Shown: positions 51,335 to 63,941 of the stretch, in pieces
Numbering within the stretch: the stretch's first letter is position 1
Layout: the number at the start of each line of letters is the position of its first letter
Origin: Laetiporus sulphureus 93-53
Taxonomy: Eukaryota; Basidiomycota; Agaricomycetes; Polyporales; Laetiporaceae
Assembly: GCF_001632365.1 (NCBI RefSeq)
Contig: NW_024468531.1
Location: 292,316 to 356,315 of the forward strand
Length of the DNA: 64,000 nucleotides
Direction of reading: 5' to 3'
Notes under the pieces: generated by a model
Database searches by the model: none
What the model was told of the DNA's origin: nothing
Seen by the model: only the letters and a program-made list of their open reading frames with translations
Program-made: the position numbers and the translations under genes

Positions 51335-52134
51335 TCATTTGTCTTTGGGTATTGGTGTCCGCGGGCACTCCAGGTCATATATGGTATATTTGGAGACATC
51401 CTCTTCCTTCACCGGGACATTCTTTGCAGTCATATACTCCCAGGGTATCTTGGTATCATCTAGGTAGTAGTAGCCGTGGGTGCATTCGGGGCACTGAATC
51501 TTCTTTTCTTCTATGATCCATTGGGCGTGGACTGGGTATACGAATTGATGGTTTCGAGAATATGGACGACTGACACAGATGATTGTGTGGATATAATGGT
51601 CAGGGTCTGCAAGCCATATTGTCGAGATATCAAGTCGCTCGGGTATGCTGATTTCTAAGCCGATCGGATATCCTTCAGGGTATGGAGCGTGACATGGGCT
51701 TGGTATTTTCTCTTTATCCATCTTTCCATTTTTTCTTGCCAGTGGATCTTTTCTCTCCATTCCTCATCCTCTGTACTATCACCAGCTTCACTGCTTTCTT
51801 CAGTCATGCCTCAGATCTTTCATCCTCTGGGTATAGTAAGGAGATTAGGCAGTCTAGGTGCCTTTGGATGTAGTTTATGGAAATTATCTAATAGTAGTAT
51901 GTGGTCCTTTGCTATCGTAGAGCAGGGTACCCAGGTGTTTTCGGTATCATCCTTCCCTTTCCATTTGACCAGGTATAATAGTCCGTTCTTGGACTTTTTG
52001 CTGTCGAGTATATGGTCAATGGTGGGGGATTCGCCTTCCGGAACGGGTATAGTACTATCGTCCTTTTGTACACTAAACTGTGGGGTATGAAATGGTAATA
52101 ATAAGGATTTGTGAAAGACGGGGTGTATATGACG
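51335..52134 (-). pseudogene. Outer element: chromodomain and C-terminal tail of Pol
   Basis: The chromodomain spans about 52035..51855: TIDHILDSKKSKNGLLYLVK, WKGKDDTENTWVP, then NFHKLHPKAPRLP. It targets integration to chromatin in chromoviruses. After two in-frame TGA codons (each CGA in likely ancestry), a ~140-residue tail continues in the same frame to 51335. It includes QWIIEEKKIQCPECTHGYYY, with a CPEC pair. I do not recognise the tail; it is not part of the usual chromovirus plan. Confidence 0.75.
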
Positions 52135-54071: not shown

Positions 54072-54793
54072 TGTCACGGTAACACCGGACAAGAGATCAA
54101 AAAGACTAAAAAGGATCAGTCACGTGGAATGTGCTGTCCTGATCTCCCTGATCTCAAGGTATCCCCCTGAACCCTATGTGGCGCAAGAGCCTATTGACTT
54201 ACTGGTTGATGTGGCATATGCAGAAAAGGGTAGAGATATATGAGGGAGCTTGGTAAGCTCAGTGAGTGCTACAGGTAGTAGACGAGGAGAAACAATCTGA
54301 GGTTTCGTCCTCTACATGGCTGGTCTTATATACATGTACAGCAGGCTATCTTACCTAAGCTACCTATCTACGGGTATAAGCTAATGGCCATACATGAAAC
54401 AATAGGATGTCTGGAAGTAGAACAATAAGTGGGAAGATTTGATGGTTGCCGCAGTAATGCATGTGCTCATCGTGCCTATCTTGGTTTTCCTTTTGTTCTC
54501 CGGTGTGAACATCGTGCCTATCTAGGCTTCTGGCTAAACTAATAGGAAGCGGAAGGCCGATGCATAACAATAGTCCTTGTTCTCTTTGTTCCCAAATGGG
54601 TGCCTCTATTGTATCCTGGAATAGACAGGTCCGACCGTATCATCCGCGGGTCTGGACCATAACATGTGATGTGGACTATCACCTGATCTCTACGCATCAC
54701 GTCTGTGGCTGAATGGCATGAGATATTGGTGAAGCACGTGATCTGTGGTGTGAGAAAAGTCACGTGCAGACTTTGTGGTGAAAATCTGTGACA
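54072..54793 (-). repeat. 3' LTR of the inner element, 722 bp
   Basis: Plus-strand ends TGTCACGG...CTGTGACA. It is collinear with 61559-62203, with 14 single-base differences and one extra 77-bp segment at about 54,160-54,238. Confidence 0.95.
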
Positions 54794-54806
54794 CTACCCC
54801 CCTTTC
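54794..54806 (-). other. Polypurine tract, inner element
   Basis: On the minus strand GAAAGGGGGGTAG sits directly before the 3' LTR and just after the dUTPase stop codon at 54814..54812. Confidence 0.8.
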
Positions 54807-54811
54807 AAGGC

Positions 54812-55185
54812 TCATTGTCCCGAGGAGCCAAAACCTTTATTACCCCTTCTAGTTGCTCACAACGGTTGGTAGCTTCAGGAGGGAAGCCCTTCTGCATAAT
54901 ACTCGAAGATTATTTGGGCTATTCTGTCTCCCGGCTTGACCGAAAATACGAAATCCATTGTGTTGATTAGTATGACCTTGAGTTCTCCAGTGTAATATGG
55001 ATCGACGACTCCTGCGCCCACGTCAATTCCTCATGCAGCCAGTCCACTGCGTGGAGCTATTCATGTATAGGTATGTTTGGGAGGGTCAATCGCGAGACTC
55101 CCATTCCTACCACAGCTCGTGAATGCGGGGGGATTTCATGCATTTCTGCTGCATAAATATCCCATCCTGCTGCTTCATTTGAGGA
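54812..55185 (-). pseudogene. Inner element: C-terminal dUTPase domain
   Basis: All five dUTPase motifs can be read, in two frames: motif 1 [20 protein letters not shown] (upper frame), then in the other frame APRSGLA (motif 2), GIDVGAGVVDPYYTGELKV (motif 3, with the substrate-stacking Tyr), PGDRIAQIIF (motif 4) and RGNKGFGSSGQ (motif 5). A 1-nt frameshift near 55,090 and several in-frame stops inactivate it. The domain hydrolyses dUTP to dUMP and limits uracil in cDNA. Here it is the last domain of Pol, directly after the chromodomain and 20 nt before the 3' LTR. Confidence 0.82.
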
Positions 55186-56163
55186 TTTTTTTGGTGATTT
55201 GGCGAGATCTGTCATCTTATGATATAGGAAGAACTCGTCTGGATGGTCAGACATGTTGATTCGGTGTGTGGAGATCGGTGCAACTTCATATGAGGATAAT
55301 TCGAAGCGTTTTCCACCAAAAGTGACGACCCTGATTGGTGCTTTTGCTGCATCTGGATGTTGCTGGTGGAATTCTTGAAGAAGCTCATCGGCGTTGGTAA
55401 GATTTGTTCGGGGTTCCCATGTATCGTCGGAATGGTCATAGCCTTTCCATTTGATGAGGTATTGGACCCTTCCCCTTACGACCTTAGAGTCTAGTATTTC
55501 TTCAACTTCGAATTCTGGTTCTCCTTCGATTTCTATAGCTGGGGGCTTTGGGGGTTTGCGGTTTGCGACCGTGTCTTGATGGTACATGATCAACTTGCTA
55601 GCGTGGAAGACCGGGTGGACCTTCATTTGCTTAGGCAGTTCCAGTTTGAATGTGACTGGGCCTAGCTTCTGAAGTACTTTGTAAGGTCCGAAGTTTTGTG
55701 TGCCTAGCTTTGCGGATTTGACTTTTACTCTGAGATCCTTTCCCTTGAGTAGTACCAGGTCTATGACTTTGAATGGGACTTCTCCCTTTTTCTCGTCAAA
55801 GTACCATTTCATCCATGAAGCTGAAACTTCCAATGCTGCCTTTGCCTGTTCTTGTGCCTCGGATCGGTGAGCGAATAGATGTTCCAATGAAGGGTGACAT
55901 ATTGATTCATGCACGTCTGGTGCCATCTTTGGATGCCGGCCATATTCGACAAAGAATGGGGAAAGTGCGGTGGACTCATGGGTCTGGTTATTGTATGAAA
56001 ATTCTGCCGTTGGCAGGTAATAGACCCAATCATTCTGTCTGTGATTACAGTACATATGTAGGTACTGTTCCAACACCTGATTAACCCTTTCTGTCTGACC
56101 ATCTGTTTGGGGGTGATATGCTGTGGACATTGTAGACTTTATACCGAGTTTCTGGCAGAACTC
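55186..56163 (-). pseudogene. Inner element: integrase C-terminal part and chromodomain
   Basis: Continues the integrase with [20 protein letters not shown] (the third catalytic residue, Glu, in TERV). Next come the GPY/F region ([19 protein letters not shown]) and HPVFHASKL, then a clear chromodomain: [49 protein letters not shown] (about 55,520-55,370). The frame is open from 56130 to 55057. Confidence 0.88.
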
Positions 56164-56694
56164 CTAGAACAGTTTGCTCGCAAATTGAGTATCTCTGTCT
56201 GAGATAATCTGGCGCGGCAATCCGTGGAGTTTGAAGACTTCATTATAGAATACGTTAGCGACTTGCGACGATGTGACTGTGTCGTCCGTTGCGTAAAAGT
56301 GCGCTCGCTTTGTGAGTCTGTCTACGACGACAAGTATTGCCATCTTCTTTTCTCCCCTAAAGTCCATGGCTGGAGGAAGTTGAGTGATGAGATCGACTGT
56401 GATGATTTCCCATGGTTCTCCTGGTACCTCATTGGGTTGTAATAGTCTGTATGGTTTTTCTCTTGAGTACTTGTTGCGTTGACAACTGTCACGACCTTGT
56501 ACGTATTGTTTAACCATTACAGACATTCCTGGCCACCAATAATTCTGGGTAATAAGCTCCAACGTTTTGAATCTGCTGGGGTGTCCAGCTGGTAAGGTGT
56601 CGTGATGGAGTTTTATTAGGTCAAGGCATAGCTGTTGATCCTTGGAGACATAAACCTTTCCACGATGGAGCAGCAGTCCGTGCTCAAAGTTCAT
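56164..56694 (-). pseudogene. Inner element: integrase zinc finger and catalytic core
   Basis: HH...C region: LHHDTLPAGHPSRFKTLEL, then VQGRDSCQRNK, where the first Cys of the CxxC pair is Arg. The catalytic Asp residues are both present (ITVDLITQLP; IISDRDTQFASKLF). A TAG (56166..56164) separates this frame from its continuation, and a frameshift near 56,720 separates it from RNase H. Confidence 0.85.
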
Positions 56695-57443
56695 TCTGCG
56701 AGGTTTTTCCCAAATTCGTGCTGTCCTGTAGTCAAAAGCGCACGATAATTTTTGGTCATCATGTCATCTGTGAGTGCCTTCTTGATCCTTTCCAGTAGTT
56801 GAGCATCATCAACTTCAGATGCGTGAGTGGGTCGAATCGCATTGATAGCGAAAAATTCAGGTTTTAACAGCATTTGGTTCAAATTGTCGCTGTCTACCCC
56901 CCTCTCATGGTCTGGCCTCCTGGACAGAGGATCGGCACGTAGCATAGTCTTTCCAGGTTGGTGACTAAGTATGAAATTAAATCTTGTGAGGAATAATGAC
57001 CAGCGCACTTGGCGCCGGGATAATTTTTGTGCCTGACAGAAGTATGTAAGGTTGAGATGGTCTGACCAAATCTCAATGGGTTCTAGGTGTCCTTCTAAAT
57101 AGTGCCGGTATTCTTCTAGTGCCCGAATGATAGCAAGCATCTCCTTGTCATAAATCTCATAGTTCCGCTCATGTTCGTTGAGTGACTTAGAGTAGTATGC
57201 GACTGAATGCCATAGCTTGTCCTCTCCCAGTTGTTCGAGTACTGCACCAGTTGCGTAATCTGAAGAGTCTGTTTCTAGACAGTATGGTGCAGTGTCATTG
57301 GGGAGTTGTAGGATCGGGGCTGAAGTGAACACCATTTTAAGTGCACTGAAGGCTTGGTCTTGCTCTTCCTTCCATTGCCAGGGCACGTCCTTACAGGTGA
57401 GAAGCGTTAAAGGTCATGCGAGTTTCGCAAAGTCCTTTATAAA
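56691..57443 (-). pseudogene. Inner element: RNase H
   Basis: Begins after two in-frame TGA codons (57446..57444 and 57416..57414). Motifs: APYCLETDSSDYATGAVLEQ, VAYYSKSLNEHERNYEIYDK, EMLAIIRALEEYRHYLEG, IEIWSDHLNLTYF and the closing HQPGKTMLRADPLSRRPDH. Catalytic acidic residues (ETDSS, KEMLA, WSDH) are retained. Confidence 0.88.
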
Positions 57444-58415
57444 TCACCTGTAGAAATTCGCGAATCCTAAAAAGGCCTGTACTTGTTTGACCTTTGTCGG
57501 TGCGGGCCAGCCAAGTACACCTTCGACTTTAGCAGGGTCCATCTGTACTGAGTTCTTGCTGATGATCATGCCAAGATACTCGATTGAGGACTGTTCAAAG
57601 AAGCATTTCTCCGGTTTGACATATAAGTCATTGTCCCGGAGGCACTGTAGAACTGCTTTCACTAGTCGTCGGTGTTCATCGAGATTGTCTGTAAATATGA
57701 GGATATCGTCTAAGTAGACTACCACCTTTCCAGTGTAAATTAAGTCTTCGAGGACTGTATTCATCATTGTTTGGAAGGTGCTAGGAACATTGCAGAAACT
57801 GAAGTACATTACGGTGGGTTCGAAGAGACCATGATGTGTGATGAAGGTGGCTTTCTCTTCGTCTCCTTCCCTAATCCTTATGTTGTTGAACCCCCATCTC
57901 AGATCAAGCTTCGTAAATATACTAGCATGTGAGAGTCTGTCGATGAGGTCCAAAATGCGTGGGATTGGGAACTTGTTCTTCTTTGTGACTGCATTGAGGT
58001 TCCTGTAATCTTGTATGAGCCTCAGTGATCCGTCTTTCTTTTTGACGAAAAAAACGGGTGCTGCAGTTGGACTCCTTGATCTCTTGATGTAACCTTTGGC
58101 CAACTCTTGGTCTATCCACGTGTCGAGCGAATTTCTTTCCTGTAGGTTCATAGGATATAACTTTGCCGGGCATGGTAACGATGCCTCTGAAACAAGTTCG
58201 ATTGGATGATCGTAGGGCTTTCTTGTGGGCATTCGTTCTGACTGCTTCTTGGAGAACACATCGCCATACTCGTGGAAGTGTTTGGGGACATAGGCTGACC
58301 AGTAGTCTTTGTCCTGTTCTCCTTTTTGCGGTGCTCTATCCTGATTCCTCTTGGTGTCAAGACCCATAATGAGTGATGCTACGGCCTGTGCATCAGGGTC
58401 TTCTGATAATGACAC
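57444..58415 (-). pseudogene. Inner element: reverse transcriptase
   Basis: A 323-codon open frame carrying the RT palm: VFFVKKKDGSLRLIQDYRNL, FTKLDLRWGFNNIRIREGDE, ATFITHHGLFEPTVMYFSFC, VVYLDDILIFTDNLDEH (the YLDD catalytic box) and the thumb start VKPEKCFFEQSSIEYLG. It is in frame with the protease ORF across a single TGA at 58418..58416. This is the best preserved part of the element. Confidence 0.92.
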
Positions 58416-58919
58416 TCATCTGATGAAGCTGTCCATGTCGTTCCAGTTGTCACCTAACTCCTGGGAACCAACGAACTCCATTAGGTCTTCGATGTGGGAG
58501 ATGTTTGTGTCTTCCAGGTCCTCCTTCTGGATTGCTACCTGTGAGGGTGTGCATCTTTGTGGGCACCGGGTGAAATCGACTGTGAGTTTTCCCCAATTCA
58601 CTTTGGGATTATGCTCCTTGAGGAAACTCATGCCTAGTATAACGTCTTTATGTCCTATATCGGTGACCAAAAGGCTTTGCTTGCTTGTGTGATTTCTGAT
58701 GGTTATACTTAGAAGAACCCTTTTCTTAACGGTTCCACCCTTGTTGTGAGATGCATCTGCGTTGTAAACCCTGATCTCTTTCTCGAGTGAGATCGTAGTG
58801 AGATTCAACTGATCAACCAGCCATGGGTTGATGTAGCAAGAATATGCTCCTGAATCGAGGAGCGCCTCAGTCTGGACTTCCCTTACTCCCTGTTTGAGGT
58901 GAACAGGTAAATCAATCAC
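58416..58919 (-). pseudogene. Inner element: aspartic protease
   Basis: Retropepsin-type active site TEALLDSGAYSCYIN (D-S-G), the flap-side region and the helix-turn ILGMSFLKEHNPKVNWGK, followed by the linker to RT. It lies in a different frame from gag, so ancestral expression needed a frameshift or a separate start. The final SFIR*VSLSED join to RT is a simple in-frame TGA. Confidence 0.85.
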
Positions 58920-59023
58920 ATGTTTTGACGAACCAGTAGATGCGATGTATAAAAAACTTGATACTGGTACATGCGAGAGCGAGTAGGTACTATTACAGTG
59001 TCTATGGGAACTCTGGCCAGACC

Positions 59024-61522
59024 TCAGAGAACCCGCCGAAGAAAATCCTCATCATCTTCTATCTCCGTGATCCTAGCTGCTTTGACAGCTGGTTCCGGTT
59101 CTGCCTCCTTTTCCTTTCCCTTTGCGTCGTAGCTGGCGATGAAAGCATGGACTGCTTCTTCCCTCGCCTTGCTGTCGTCAGAGATGTCTGAGGCCGTGTT
59201 TGAAGAAATTGTCCTTGTTGCTTGGCCCCACTTTGGCAGTTCAAATTTGCCTTTGTACTTGGGGTCTGGGCATCGCTGTTTAAAAATGAAGGGGTGTTTC
59301 CCACATCGTACACACAGCTTTTTCTCCAGCCATCCTTCTTGCTCTTTGGTGAGGGTGGATACTCGATCCACGACCATTGCGTTGGGGTCTTTTGGGGCTC
59401 ATGGTGTTGATGATGATGATGTTGTTACTGTTCCGCATTGACCTGCCTTGTCGGCTCTGAACTTGGACTCGAGTTGTAAGCAGAGGTCGAGGTATTTCGG
59501 CCATGTGATTGGGTCAGAAATGCCTAGGCTGTCTCGTGTGACCATTGCCTGTCGTACCTCCTTGCTTTGGTGTTCAGCGATGTAACCGATGAGTGCGGTG
59601 TGCCCTAAGTTGGTCTGAGTGACCCATTGCCGGAACTGTTCTGTGAAGGAGACCATGGTAGGATAGATTTTTGTGCAGATCTCCTTCAAATGTTGTTGTG
59701 CGTCCTTGTCCGGGTCGAGGGTCCTGTAGTTTACTTTGAGAATGTTGATGAAGTCTTCCCATGTGCCGAGTGCCTGCCGTGCTGCTGCTCTGGTCACGTA
59801 CTCGGACATGTATGTGAACACGCCACCTTCCAAATGCAGCAGGGCCGTGGTAATCTTGTGTTCATCGTCGTTGATCTCATTCCACCGCATCCATATACCG
59901 AGTTGTTGGAGCCAGTCCTCTAGACTTCCTTTGCCCGAGTAGTGTGGAGGTTCGGCAATTTTGATGCGGGGCTTGTGTGATTGGACCATGCCGGATGTTT
60001 GACCTTGCATTGTAGTGACGCCGCTTGCTTTGAGCGAAGCTAGCTCGTGCCGCAGCTTAACGTTAGCTGCCTTGATTTCCATCATTTCTTTGCCCATGTC
60101 GAGCATTGCTGCCTGGATTCCCGTGAGCTCATCATTTAAAACTGTCATATGTGCATCTTGTGCAAGGATCCTATCCTTAAGCTTCCCGATCTCCATCTGG
60201 AGAACTGCCTCCTTAAGTCGGTGTTCGCTTTTGTTGTTTTGGATTAGCGATTCAAAGGCTTTCTTGTGCTCGTACATCTTGTTTTTGAGCACATTGTAGA
60301 TCTTGGCAATTTTGGTAGTGACTGTGAGCTTCATTGCGACAATTACCCATTCGCGTATGTGGTCCGGGACTTCTCCGGGAGTCGACTGTCTGAGAGCATC
60401 TTCTAGGTGCTCGAATTGGTGTCCGTCAAGCTCCCAGATGGGTGAAACGTAGGCGGGTACAAGTGATGGTGTCGGGGATGCTGGTCCTCCGACTTGAGAT
60501 GCAGAGTCCTGTGGTCCTAGCGCAGGTTCTGGTGAATTGCGCTGCGAGGCACGTGGGGTGCTTCTGTCATGTGCTGACTCGACGTTTATATGAAGAATGT
60601 CATCCATTCATTGCCTGAATGTGGATGCGTGTGCACGATCGGCTGACTCCATTGTGATATAGGTAAACTAATACAAAAAGTGCAAATATCTCACTTTCGA
60701 GATAAAGACCAGAGCCTTGGTGATTTTCTGCAGCCTCTCTTCCTTTTCTATCTGCTTGAAACTGATTCCCCCTATCTCCAGACAGACTTTGTTGATAACC
60801 TGCTTCTCGACGAATGTATATGTGCACATCCCTGTGTGTAGGTCGGCGCAGACTTTATCGAGCTCTGTGGCGAGGCTAAAGATGGGTCCTTGGTGCTCGT
60901 CCTTGAGATGATATGAGAATGCTCCTAATATGGGTTGGAGCCTGAAGCGGGTAGTGTCTACCTGCTTCGTAAGGGTCTCAATGTGGATCGTCGGCCTGAC
61001 TCTGGAAGGGAGTGGGCGGATGGGATGTGCAACAGTGTTTGTCTTTATGAAGTTGGGTAGGGGATGAGTTGGAATGGGAGCAATGATGGGGGGAGGAACT
61101 GCGTTGGAAGTGATAAGCTCTGGGGGTGGTGCCGGCTTGCGACTACCAGTGGTAAGTCATCCTTTTCTGGGCTTGTAGCATTCAAGCGGTGGGGTGCGAT
61201 CACGAGGTTTGCGGATGATTTCGTACTTTATAATGTGTGTAGTATCGACAACCCTAGCTGCTGCGCGCTGCCTGTCTGTGGACGATGCGCTGAGTGACGT
61301 GAGTGTGAGGAGTCTTCCACGCTCCTTGTTGGTTTCCTGACGCTTGTAGTGGGTGTCGAGGTCGATCCTGGGGGTGACCTTGCGCTTTGAGGCTTTGGGC
61401 AGCTCAGAGTCTTGCTGAGGCTCACGCCGGGTAGAGATCGGGTTGGAATGTATGTCAAAAAAGCTGTGCGCTACAGCTGAAACTGCTTGTGCTGAAAATA
61501 TGTGGCCGCTTGTGTTAGACAC
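59024..61522 (-). pseudogene. Inner element: gag with long N-terminal extension
   Basis: One frame of about 833 codons broken by TGA (61159..61157), TAG (60670..60668), TGA (60610..60608) and TGA (59401..59399). Main part (60607..59402): coiled coil AFESLIQNNKSEHRLKEAVL, then the capsid-like KIAEPPHYSGKGSLEDWLQQ and PDKDAQQHLKEICTKIYPTM. The last part has a single zinc-knuckle-like CVRCGKHPFIFKQRC. The extension before 60607 (~300 codons, Pro-rich middle, helical end KVCLEIGGISFKQIEKEERL) is unusual for gag. The start codon is unresolved; the first codon at 61522 is GTG. Confidence 0.75.
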
Positions 61523-61558
61523 TAAGCAGGGGTGCAGAAAATGTCAGATTGTTTCTAA

Positions 61559-62203
61559 TGTCACGGTAACACCGGACAAGAGATCAAAAAGACTAAAAAG
61601 GATCAGTCATGTGGAATGTGCTGTCCTGATCCCCCTGATCTCAAGATATATGAGGGAGCTTGGTAAGCTCAGTGAGTGCTACAGGTAGTAGACGAGGAGA
61701 AACAATCTGAGGTTTCATCCTCTACATGGCTGGTCTTATATACATGTACAGCAGGCTATCTTACCTAAGCTACCTATCTACGGGTATAAGCTAATGGCCA
61801 TACATGAAACAATAGGATGTCTGGAAGTAGAACAATAAGTGGGAAGATTTGATGGTTGCCGCAGTAATGCATGTGCTCATCGTGCCTATCTTGGTTTCCC
61901 TTTTGTTCTCCGGTGTGAACATCGTGCCTATCTAGGCTTCTGGCTAAACTAATAGGAAGTGGAAGGCTGATGCATAACAATAGTCCTTGTTCCCTTTGTT
62001 CCCAAATGGGTGCCTCTATTGTATCCTGGAATAGACAGGTCCGACCGTATCATCCGCGGGTCTGGACCATAACATGTGATGTGGACTATCACCTGATCTC
62101 TACGCGTCGCATCTGTGGCTGAGTGGCATGAGATATTGGTGAAGCACATGATCTGTGGTGTGAGAAAAGTCACATGCAGACTTTGTGGCGAAAATCTGTG
62201 ACA
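61559..62203 (-). repeat. 5' LTR of the inner element, 645 bp
   Basis: Plus-strand ends TGTCACGG...CTGTGACA, matching 54072-54793 apart from transitions and a 77-bp deletion. The internal sequence next to it (minus strand TTAGAAACAATCTGAC) shows no obvious tRNA-complementary primer site. Confidence 0.95.
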
Positions 62204-62208
62204 CATGT
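62204..62208. repeat. Target-site duplication, right copy (CATGT)
   Basis: Identical to 54067-54071; marks the right edge of the inner insertion. Confidence 0.93.
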
Positions 62209-62785
62209 GTTCCCGGAGTATTCTAAGTACCTGTTTTACAACCTGGCGATGTTCCTCCATGTCCTTGGTGAATATTAAGATATCGTCCAGATATACCATA
62301 ACCTTTCCAGTGAGGATAAGATTGTGAAAGATGTCATTCATCATCATTTGGAACGTTGATGGTGAATTAGTGAGTCCGAAGAACATCACTAGAGGTTCGA
62401 ATAGACCTCAGTTCGTGACGAACGTGGCCTTTTCCTCGTCTCCTTCCTTGATCCATATGTTATTATAAACCCACCGGATGTTGAGTTTAGAGTAGAATTG
62501 GGCTCCCTTAAGCCGGTCAAATAAGTCATTGATTAGAGGGAGCGGGTATTTATTTTTCTTCGTGATTTCATTGAGCCATCTATAGTCCTGAACCGGCCTT
62601 GATTTGCCATCCTTTTTCTTGACAAAGAAGAAGGGGGCATCCCAGGGGGATTTAGACTGTCTGATGCAACCAGTCTTTAGATTTTCTTTGAGGAAAATAT
62701 CCAGAGCTTCTTGTTCTTTTATGCTCATTGGGTATACCTTTCCGCAGAAGGATTTCGCGCTGTCTACTAGTTCTATAGCATGATT
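62209..62785 (-). pseudogene. Outer element: 5' part of reverse transcriptase
   Basis: Reads FFFVKKKDGKSRPVQDYRWL, KLNIRWVYNNIWIKEGDEEK, ATFVTN*GLFEPLVMFFGL, STFQMMMNDIF and VMVYLDDILIFTKDMEEH up to LRILREHM at the insertion site. In-frame stops lie in CRV*NHAIEL (about 62,786) and VTN*GLFEP (about 62,408). The catalytic YLDD is retained. The frame resumes at 54,066 on the other side of the inner element. Confidence 0.88.
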
Positions 62786-63226
62786 TCATACTCTGCACTC
62801 AGGCAACTGATCGAATTCAGTTTCCTCGAAGACCTCCTTGTAATTCCAATATTCTTCTGGAACTACCTCTTGCATGCTCTTAGCTTTAGTACTTATGCCT
62901 TGAGCGATGGCTAGATCGGTGGCCTTGGTGGCTCGTATGTGTTCATATTCGGAAAACTGCTTCTGAATGTAGTCGCTGTCCAGTGCCAGCACCTTGTCAC
63001 CATCCTCCAGCTTGAGCTCCCCACAGTTACAACGTGTGAAGGGAAGTGTGCATTTAGCCCAATCTATCTCTGGATTATGGTATTCTAACCAGTCAAACCC
63101 GAGGAATATGTCGTGGTCTGAAAGGGTAGTGACATTGAGCTTGCGGCGCTCTCTATGGCCCTGAACAACTATGTCTAGAAATACATAATGTGTCATATCG
63201 CCATTTCGGTTGGGGGATCCATTCAC
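62786..63226 (-). pseudogene. Outer element: C-terminal half of protease and linker to RT
   Basis: Contains MTHYVFLDIVVQGHRERRKL, DIFLGFDWLEYHNPEIDWAK and a linker running to FEETEFDQLPECRV. It is one frame away from the preceding dUTPase-protease ORF because of the A7 run at 63282..63276, and is further cut by a TGA at 63247..63245. Confidence 0.8.
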
Positions 63227-63941
63227 ATTGAAAACTTGTACCGGTCATTTGAACGGTATAGTGGGTATATTGAACTTTTTTTACAAATTGTTCGTCGATG
63301 CAGCATCCAGTGCATCCGGAGTCTAGGAGTGCATTTGCTGGTATATTCCTGTCCCCAACTTCTATAGTCATTGGTATATCGATCTGGCAATGTCGTCGTA
63401 CTGCTCGAACATTGAAGTTGCCTTGCAGTTTATGACCAGTGGACCCGAATCCAGCAGTCCCTCTTGCTGTTTCTGCTATCTCCGTTATGACTTTGGTAAT
63501 GAGGGTATCGTTTCGTCCTAAGATGAGCTGGGCAATGTGATCGCCATACTCAATCTCGAAAGGGGTATCAAGGGTATTGATTAGCAGTATTTTGACTCGT
63601 CCTGTGTAGTCTGAGTCTATTACTCCGGCTCCTACATCTATTCCCTTTTTTACAGCCAGACCTGGGCGTGGAGCGATGCGTCCGTAGCATCCACTTGATA
63701 TCATCAACTTCAGGCTGGTATCTATGAGTCCATGAGAATGGGGTCCTATAGTACATTGCTCCACTGAATGCAAGTCATATCCTGCTGCTCCATCTGACTG
63801 ATGTGAGGGTACAATCGCTTGTGGATGGTCTAGATATACATGCAAGGTTGTTTTCCTGTTCTTCTTCTGTGTATGCTTGGGGGTGGAAGCTGCAACCTGC
63901 AAACTGTCAGTGTTCAAAGATGAAGAAATAAAAGGTTTCAT
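63153..63941 (-). pseudogene. Outer element: dUTPase fused upstream of aspartic protease
   Basis: The ORF from ATG 63941 encodes a short linker and then a complete dUTPase: DGAAGYDLHSVEQCTIGPHS (motif 1), GRIAPRPGLAVKKG (motif 2), IDVGAGVIDSDYTGRVKILL (motif 3 with Tyr), YGDHIAQLIL (motif 4) and RGTAGFGSTGHK (motif 5). About 40 residues later comes the retropepsin active site ANALLDSGCTGCCID. The dUTPase part is uninterrupted and retains all motif residues; the protease runs into a frameshift near 63,280. The frame just upstream of the ATG has a TAA, so the link to gag is not seen. Confidence 0.88.

What the first reader, a model, noticed from the sequence alone, without database searches (positions are those of the whole stretch)
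54812..63941. Two nested chromoviruses carry dUTPase at two different positions in the polyprotein
Seen directly: the outer element has a dUTPase with five motifs (63941 to ~63,420) directly upstream of its aspartic protease. The inner element has one (55,185-54,812) as the last domain of Pol, after the chromodomain and abutting the polypurine tract. Known: dUTPases occur in some retroviruses, next to the protease in betaretroviruses and between RNase H and integrase in non-primate lentiviruses; most Ty3/gypsy elements lack them. Inference: either the domain was gained twice by fungal chromoviruses, or it moved within the polyprotein. A post-chromodomain dUTPase is an arrangement I do not recognise.
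Basis: partly seen in the sequence, partly recalled or inferred. Interest (0 to 1): 0.9.

Follow-up and report, generated by a model that had tools for sequence, protein, structure and literature searches.

The report
dUTPase-carrying fungal retrotransposons, nested
Two nested jumping genes in a wood-rotting fungus come from families that carry a dUTP-cleaving enzyme at opposite ends of their long protein; this layout was already described in a related fungus in 2010, so it is a new example of a known thing.

Summary
The outer element has a dUTPase (DUT) just upstream of its protease. The inner one has it after the chromodomain (CHR), but that copy is broken by a frameshift and four stops. Host: Laetiporus sulphureus 93-53. 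Of 150 scored DUT hits in its genome (204 candidates), 123 have CHR 100-209 nt upstream; 12 more show DUT-PR. In L062 and L063 the C-terminal DUT shares one open frame with RT to CHR. This is in print: PMC2864245 reports dUTPase at the N-terminus, C-terminus, or between PR and RT of Pol in Postia placenta. New here: three CHR-DUT families form one RT group and share a one-residue-shorter linker, 48 of 48 DUTs against 0 of 12 DUT-PR copies. That favours one C-terminal gain separate from the outer one, but DUT trees reject neither a single origin (p 0.21-0.32) nor kinship of the outer DUT with basidiomycete cellular ones (p 0.126). DUT is constrained (pN/pS 0.09-0.20). Likely role, inferred: lowering dUTP during reverse transcription.

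The parts
63435..63818 (-). outer element: dUTPase domain, N-terminal side of Pol
   Evidence: Pfam PF00692 E 1.6e-34; own-genome hit G000:C22:355750-356133
63222..63416 (-). outer element: start of aspartic protease directly after the dUTPase
   Evidence: query PRo; weak Pfam Asp_protease_2 E 0.012; the same segment found after DUT in L001-L006
62408..62728 (-). outer element: 5' part of reverse transcriptase
   Evidence: Pfam RVT_1 E 6.1e-8
51860..52030 (-). outer element: chromodomain (approximate)
   Evidence: read by eye in translation; query CHRo matches chromodomains of relatives
51335..51760 (-). outer element: extra domain after the chromodomain, unknown function
   Evidence: 18 match rows at 16 places in the genome, the window among them; at four places the open frame (1,778-1,798 codons) has the length of the frame reported for the DUT about 4 kb away, in the same phase; alignment A1
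61559..62203 (-). inner element: 5' LTR
   Evidence: repeat search, ends and CATGT flank
59399..60607 (-). inner element: Gag ORF
   Evidence: weak Pfam Ty3_capsid E 0.0013, below cut-off
58416..58919 (-). inner element: aspartic protease
   Evidence: Pfam gag-asp_proteas E 1.6e-9
57444..58415 (-). inner element: reverse transcriptase
   Evidence: Pfam RVT_1 E 3.8e-32
55363..55512 (-). inner element: chromodomain
   Evidence: Pfam Chromo E 2.2e-19; G000:C22:347678-347827
54812..55266 (-). inner element: dUTPase domain, last domain of Pol, broken by a frameshift and four stops
   Evidence: two profile matches in two frames, the second running on to 54797; Pfam partial match; translation
54072..54793 (-). 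inner element: 3' LTR; purine run directly upstream of it

Best explanation
Two nested Ty3/gypsy chromovirus copies of Laetiporus sulphureus, from two element groups that encode a trimeric-type dUTPase as part of Pol. In the outer family Pol is DUT-PR-RT-RH-IN-CHR plus an extra C-terminal domain; in the inner family it is PR-RT-RH-IN-CHR-DUT. Shown: domain orders, recurrence across the genome, open Pol frames in relatives, sequence constraint on DUT. Inferred: the enzyme is packaged with the Pol proteins and hydrolyses dUTP during reverse transcription, so that less uracil enters the cDNA; PR frees it, or it stays joined to IN-CHR in the C-terminal case. I think the C-terminal DUT was gained once, before the three CHR-DUT families split, and that the outer DUT was a separate gain (about 0.6; one gain followed by a move about 0.35).
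For: DUT matches in both elements. 123 of 150 scored DUT hits have CHR 100-209 nt upstream on the same strand; 12 of the other 27 show DUT-PR in fetched sequence. In L062 (1,242 codons) and L063 (1,196 codons, running to the locus edge) one stretch without stop or N reaches the end of DUT, and the RT, RH, IN, CHR and DUT matches lie in one phase. RT tree of 19 of 27 extracted rows: inner, C and B together against outer (100/100; midpoint root, no outside group); identity 66-75% among the three, 56-60% to outer. DUT: inner and C one clade, support 99-100. Motif 2-3 linker one residue shorter in 25 of 25 inner, 19 of 19 B and 4 of 4 C DUTs, in 0 of 12 outer DUTs. pN/pS of DUT 0.09-0.20 in four families, of RT 0.03-0.16 in three.
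Against: One origin for all Laetiporus element DUTs is not rejected (p-AU 0.318, 0.315, 0.214, 0.297), and deep branches of the DUT tree are open. B does not join inner and C in the free trees, although holding them together is not rejected (p 0.421, 0.365, 0.326, 0.32). The short linker also occurs elsewhere: of 349 database proteins 304 long, 9 short (5 of them close to inner or C), 36 not matched by the pattern, at least two of those short. No activity data. Both window copies are damaged. pN/pS used copies chosen as mostly intact.
Confidence: 0.75

Rival explanations
1. One capture of a DUT by an ancestral chromovirus, followed by a move of the domain within Pol (recombination between elements) to give the second position.
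For: AU tests do not reject one clade for all Laetiporus element DUTs (p 0.318, 0.315, 0.214, 0.297). The families live in one genome and nest in each other, which gives chances for recombination.
Against: The linker deletion and the RT grouping separate the outer from the C-terminal families; the outer DUT is only about 39-52% identical to the others over near-full matches.
Confidence: 0.35
2. The outer DUT was captured from a basidiomycete cellular DUT gene.
For: Holding the outer DUTs together with seven basidiomycete cellular DUTs is not rejected once a fern-labelled row that lies inside the basidiomycete group is left out (p 0.126).
Against: The free trees do not group them: the seven cellular rows are one clade without outer, 100/99. 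The first test gave p 0.0002, but it also forced the fern-labelled row P0341 out of the group and is not used. The host's own gene was not found.
Confidence: 0.2
3. The C-terminal DUT acts mainly as an oligomerisation or docking module of the integrase-chromodomain protein, its catalytic role being secondary.
For: Retroviral dUTPases studied are homotrimers (PMC4531489, section 8), and the domain lies 100-209 nt after CHR at 123 of 150 hits.
Against: Catalytic motifs are widely kept: motif 4 reads GDRIAQ or GDRVAQ in 48 of 60 extracted domains, motif 2 exactly APRSGLA in 35 of 60. In B motif 3 reads AGVIDRGY, keeping the Asp that I recall as catalytic but not the second Asp.
Confidence: 0.08
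4. The DUT is a neutral passenger or an annotation or assembly accident.
For: 33 of 60 extracted DUT domains have at least one premature stop.
Against: pN/pS well below 1 in all four families tested; 123 places with the same order; the same orders in proteins from other sources (P0055, P0091).
Confidence: 0.02

Closest known systems
PosPlaTy3-3, -4 and -5 of Postia placenta (PMC2864245; passages seen, figures and additional files not seen)
   Same: Gypsy LTR elements of a basidiomycete with dUTPase at the N-terminus (-3) or the C-terminus (-4) of Pol; the authors too think that the domain was acquired independently.
   Different: The third position, between PR and RT (-5), was not seen in the 62 of 150 DUT hits whose sequence I held; the paper's elements were not compared by sequence.
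dUTPase elements of Phanerochaete chrysosporium (Novikova and Blinov 2008; seen only as a citation)
   Same: Basidiomycete Metaviridae with dUTPase.
   Different: Not compared.
Betaretroviruses (PMC4531489, section 8)
   Same: DUT next to protease.
   Different: There DUT is a Gag-Pro trans-frame protein fused to NC; no such fusion was tested here.
Endogenous retroviruses with DUT at the 3' end of pol, C-terminal to IN (PMC4531489, section 8; the name ERV-L from the titles of its references 54 and 55)
   Same: DUT as the last Pol domain.
   Different: No chromodomain between IN and DUT, as far as I recall.
Bdelloid rotifer Juno, Vesta and TelKA (PMC5408684, passages)
   Same: LTR elements with DUT.
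   Different: DUT between PR and RT; no chromodomain.

Membership tests
Ty3/gypsy chromovirus | PR, RT, RNase H, IN order with C-terminal chromodomain | tested here: met
   inner by Pfam for PR, RT and CHR; PR, RT, RH, IN, CHR order of relatives by blast; outer chromodomain by eye and blast only
Ty3/gypsy chromovirus | LTRs and short target duplication | tested here: met
   inner only: LTRs and CATGT on both sides; outer LTRs not examined
trimeric dUTPase family (PF00692) | profile match over the whole domain, with the motifs | tested here: met
   outer; inner in two frames; motifs over 60 extracted domains (no match to my motif patterns in 23 for motif 1, whose pattern misses the AGMD form of B, 7 for motif 2, 3 for motif 4, 9 for motif 5)
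trimeric dUTPase family (PF00692) | dUTP hydrolysis, trimer | not testable with these tools
   needs purified protein
PosPlaTy3-3/-4 type elements | dUTPase at N- or C-terminus of Pol | tested here: met
   against the passage of PMC2864245
PosPlaTy3-3/-4 type elements | sequence kinship | not tested
   Postia sequences were not at hand
capture from a basidiomycete cellular DUT gene | outer DUT groups with basidiomycete cellular DUTs | tested here: inconclusive
   not grouped in the free tree but not rejected, p 0.126; the p 0.0002 was inflated by row P0341; the seven rows are smut-fungus relatives (lineage recalled), and the host's own gene was not found

The most novel reading that the evidence does not exclude
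In these fungi a DUT joined behind integrase and chromodomain is a long-lived, lineage-defining part of the integration protein, kept through the split of three element families (RT identity 66-75%), and works within the integration complex, as local dUTP guard or as trimer-forming module, not merely as a packaged free enzyme.
Probability: 0.15. Interest if true: 0.55.

Novelty: new member of a known kind. Interest (0 to 1): 0.3.

Why it matters
It shows that DUT capture by fungal chromoviruses is not a curiosity: in this genome 123 of 150 scored DUT hits sit just behind a chromodomain. The two positions and the shared linker deletion give a handle on how often retroelements gain the same enzyme. 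Some proteins named dUTPase in this fungus look like element copies, so annotation of the cellular gene needs care.

Tried and rejected
Host DUT gene: sought with PF00692, an ascomycete DUT and a Jaminaea DUT. Candidate places C30:189803, C11:14102 and C2:403353 turned out to be element copies. The host gene remains unfound, probably split by introns or below the 150-hit limit.

Outer DUT with basidiomycete cellular DUTs: one search gave p 0.0002, which I first took as a rejection. The group left out P0341 (named as a fern protein, perhaps a contaminant), which lies inside the basidiomycete clade, so the test was unfair. Without that row p is 0.126; the claim was dropped.

Chromodomain elements without DUT: L064 and L067 looked DUT-less but run into N after CHR, so they say nothing. 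L065, L068 and L069 do carry DUT matches.

Other one-clade tests: all CHR-DUT including metagenomic P0055 p 0.096, outer with metagenomic P0091 p 0.237, all short-linker rows p 0.184: none rejected, none shown.

Fold of the extra outer C-terminal domain: mean pLDDT 31.1, not used. Premature stops were counted twice; one search also counted stops behind the natural end, one search does not.

Papers: searches. In PMC3248453 (passages) 'dutp' and 'deoxyuridine' do not occur in the main text.
Full report
What is there. The window lies on contig C22 of a 38.6-Mb genome. A Laetiporus sulphureus 93-53 protein (P0003, 218 aa) is found letter for letter in locus L001 of this genome, so the host is that fungus. 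On the minus strand an inner LTR element (54072-62203) sits in the reverse transcriptase of an outer one, between two copies of CATGT. Its LTRs differ at 15 of 652 aligned bases and in length by 77 bases (722 and 645).

The two dUTPases. Outer: 63818-63435, E 1.6e-34, followed in the same ORF by the protease start. Its motif 2 carries Pro where 35 of 60 extracted domains read APRSGLA. Inner: after the chromodomain the domain is complete but split over two frames, with four stops in the second. It ends just before the purine run and the 3' LTR. So the order is real, and this copy is a pseudogene.

Recurrence. PF00692 gave 150 scored hits out of 204 candidates, PF00385 150 out of 195. By coordinates, 123 of 150 DUT hits have a chromodomain 100-209 nt upstream on the same strand. 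Of the other 27: 12 show DUT-PR in fetched sequence (L001-L006, L027 which is the window copy, L051, L053, L054, L055, L057); 6 show a CHR in fetched sequence (L016, L022, L025, L052, L059, L060); 5 have a DUT of CHR-DUT type without a neighbouring CHR in the stretch (L021, L042, L047, L056, L058); 4 were not fetched. A 13th DUT-PR copy outside the 150 is L061. I held sequence for 62 of the 150 hits and saw no PR-DUT-RT order in them. Of 27 chromodomain hits without a paired DUT hit, six were fetched and scanned: L065, L068 and L069 have DUT matches, L064 and L067 run into N, L066 has only a weak chromodomain match and no other element domain. Three more have a DUT 86-148 nt downstream by coordinates of later searches (C7 and C23, C63).

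In frame. L062 has an open stretch of 1,242 codons, L063 one of 1,196 that runs to the locus edge; neither holds N, and both end at the stop after DUT motif 5. The RT, RH, IN, CHR and DUT matches share one phase in both. In the outer family four copies have open frames of 1,778 to 1,798 codons reported alike for the DUT and for an extra domain about 4 kb downstream; I did not read the middle of these frames.

Descent. The RT tree (19 of 27 extracted rows, midpoint root, no outside group) puts inner, C and B together against outer. The DUT trees join inner and C with strong support and leave B, outer and most cellular DUTs open at depth. One clade for all Laetiporus element DUTs is not rejected (p 0.318, 0.315, 0.214, 0.297), nor is inner with C and B (p 0.421, 0.365, 0.326, 0.32). 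One clade that also holds four metagenomic element proteins is rejected in two runs (p 0.012; p 0.037). The outer DUT with seven basidiomycete cellular DUTs is not rejected (p 0.126; an earlier p of 0.0002 was inflated by a fern-labelled row and is withdrawn). The groups were named after a first tree had been seen. All 48 extracted DUTs of CHR-DUT type have a motif 2-3 linker one residue shorter than the 12 outer ones. The short form is rare in the 349 database proteins held: 304 long, 9 short, 36 not matched by the pattern, of which I saw 12 and at least two are short. Together this favours one C-terminal gain and a separate outer gain, without proof.

Constraint. pN/pS of DUT is 0.089 (outer, 6 copies), 0.177 (B, 7), 0.126 (C, 3) and 0.199 (inner, 5). 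RT gives 0.033 (outer, 6), 0.063 (C, 4) and 0.161 (inner, 7). Copies were chosen as mostly intact, and the inner DUT and RT sets are different copies. DUT is thus kept, somewhat less strictly than RT.

Other sources. Metagenome proteins show DUT with CHR (P0055) and DUT with RT (P0047) by Pfam list, the order read by me, and, by my reading only, DUT-PR (P0091) and PR-DUT (P0082).

Literature. [quoted passage not shown] PMC4531489 (section 8): betaretroviral and lentiviral positions, and endogenous retroviruses with DUT C-terminal to IN. PMC5408684 (passages): rotifer elements. The finding is therefore a new member of a known kind.

How it likely works. Inferred from the family: dUTP is cleaved to dUMP and pyrophosphate near the reverse transcriptase, so less uracil enters the cDNA. 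Why the position differs is unknown. Near PR, DUT could be released early; behind CHR it may travel with integrase.

Noticed in passing
51335-51760 (minus strand); L072-L081: The outer family's Pol ends in an extra domain of about 150 residues after the chromodomain, with no Pfam match over the cut-off; 15 places besides the window match it. AlphaFold gave no usable model.
   Followed up: partly
60 extracted DUT domains in L001-L069: Premature stops are mostly TGA: 42 TGA, 5 TAA, 1 TAG, in 33 of 60 domains, as C-to-T decay at CpG would give. Cause not tested.
   Followed up: partly
P0002, P0003, P0005, P0122, P0124, P0125: Laetiporus proteins named dUTP diphosphatase or dUTPase-like in public databases share exact runs with element copies: all 218 residues of P0003, 118 of 228 in P0002, 87 of 164 in P0005, 86 of 186 in P0124, 39 of 131 in P0122, 33 of 139 in P0125. 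They look like retroelement pieces, not the cellular gene.
   Followed up: partly
54072-54793 and 61559-62203: The two LTRs of the inner element differ by 77 bases in length, a deletion in the 5' or an insertion in the 3' LTR.
   Followed up: no
L052, L061, L064, L067: Element copies often run into N; the frame lengths above 5,000 codons are probably due to N.
   Followed up: no
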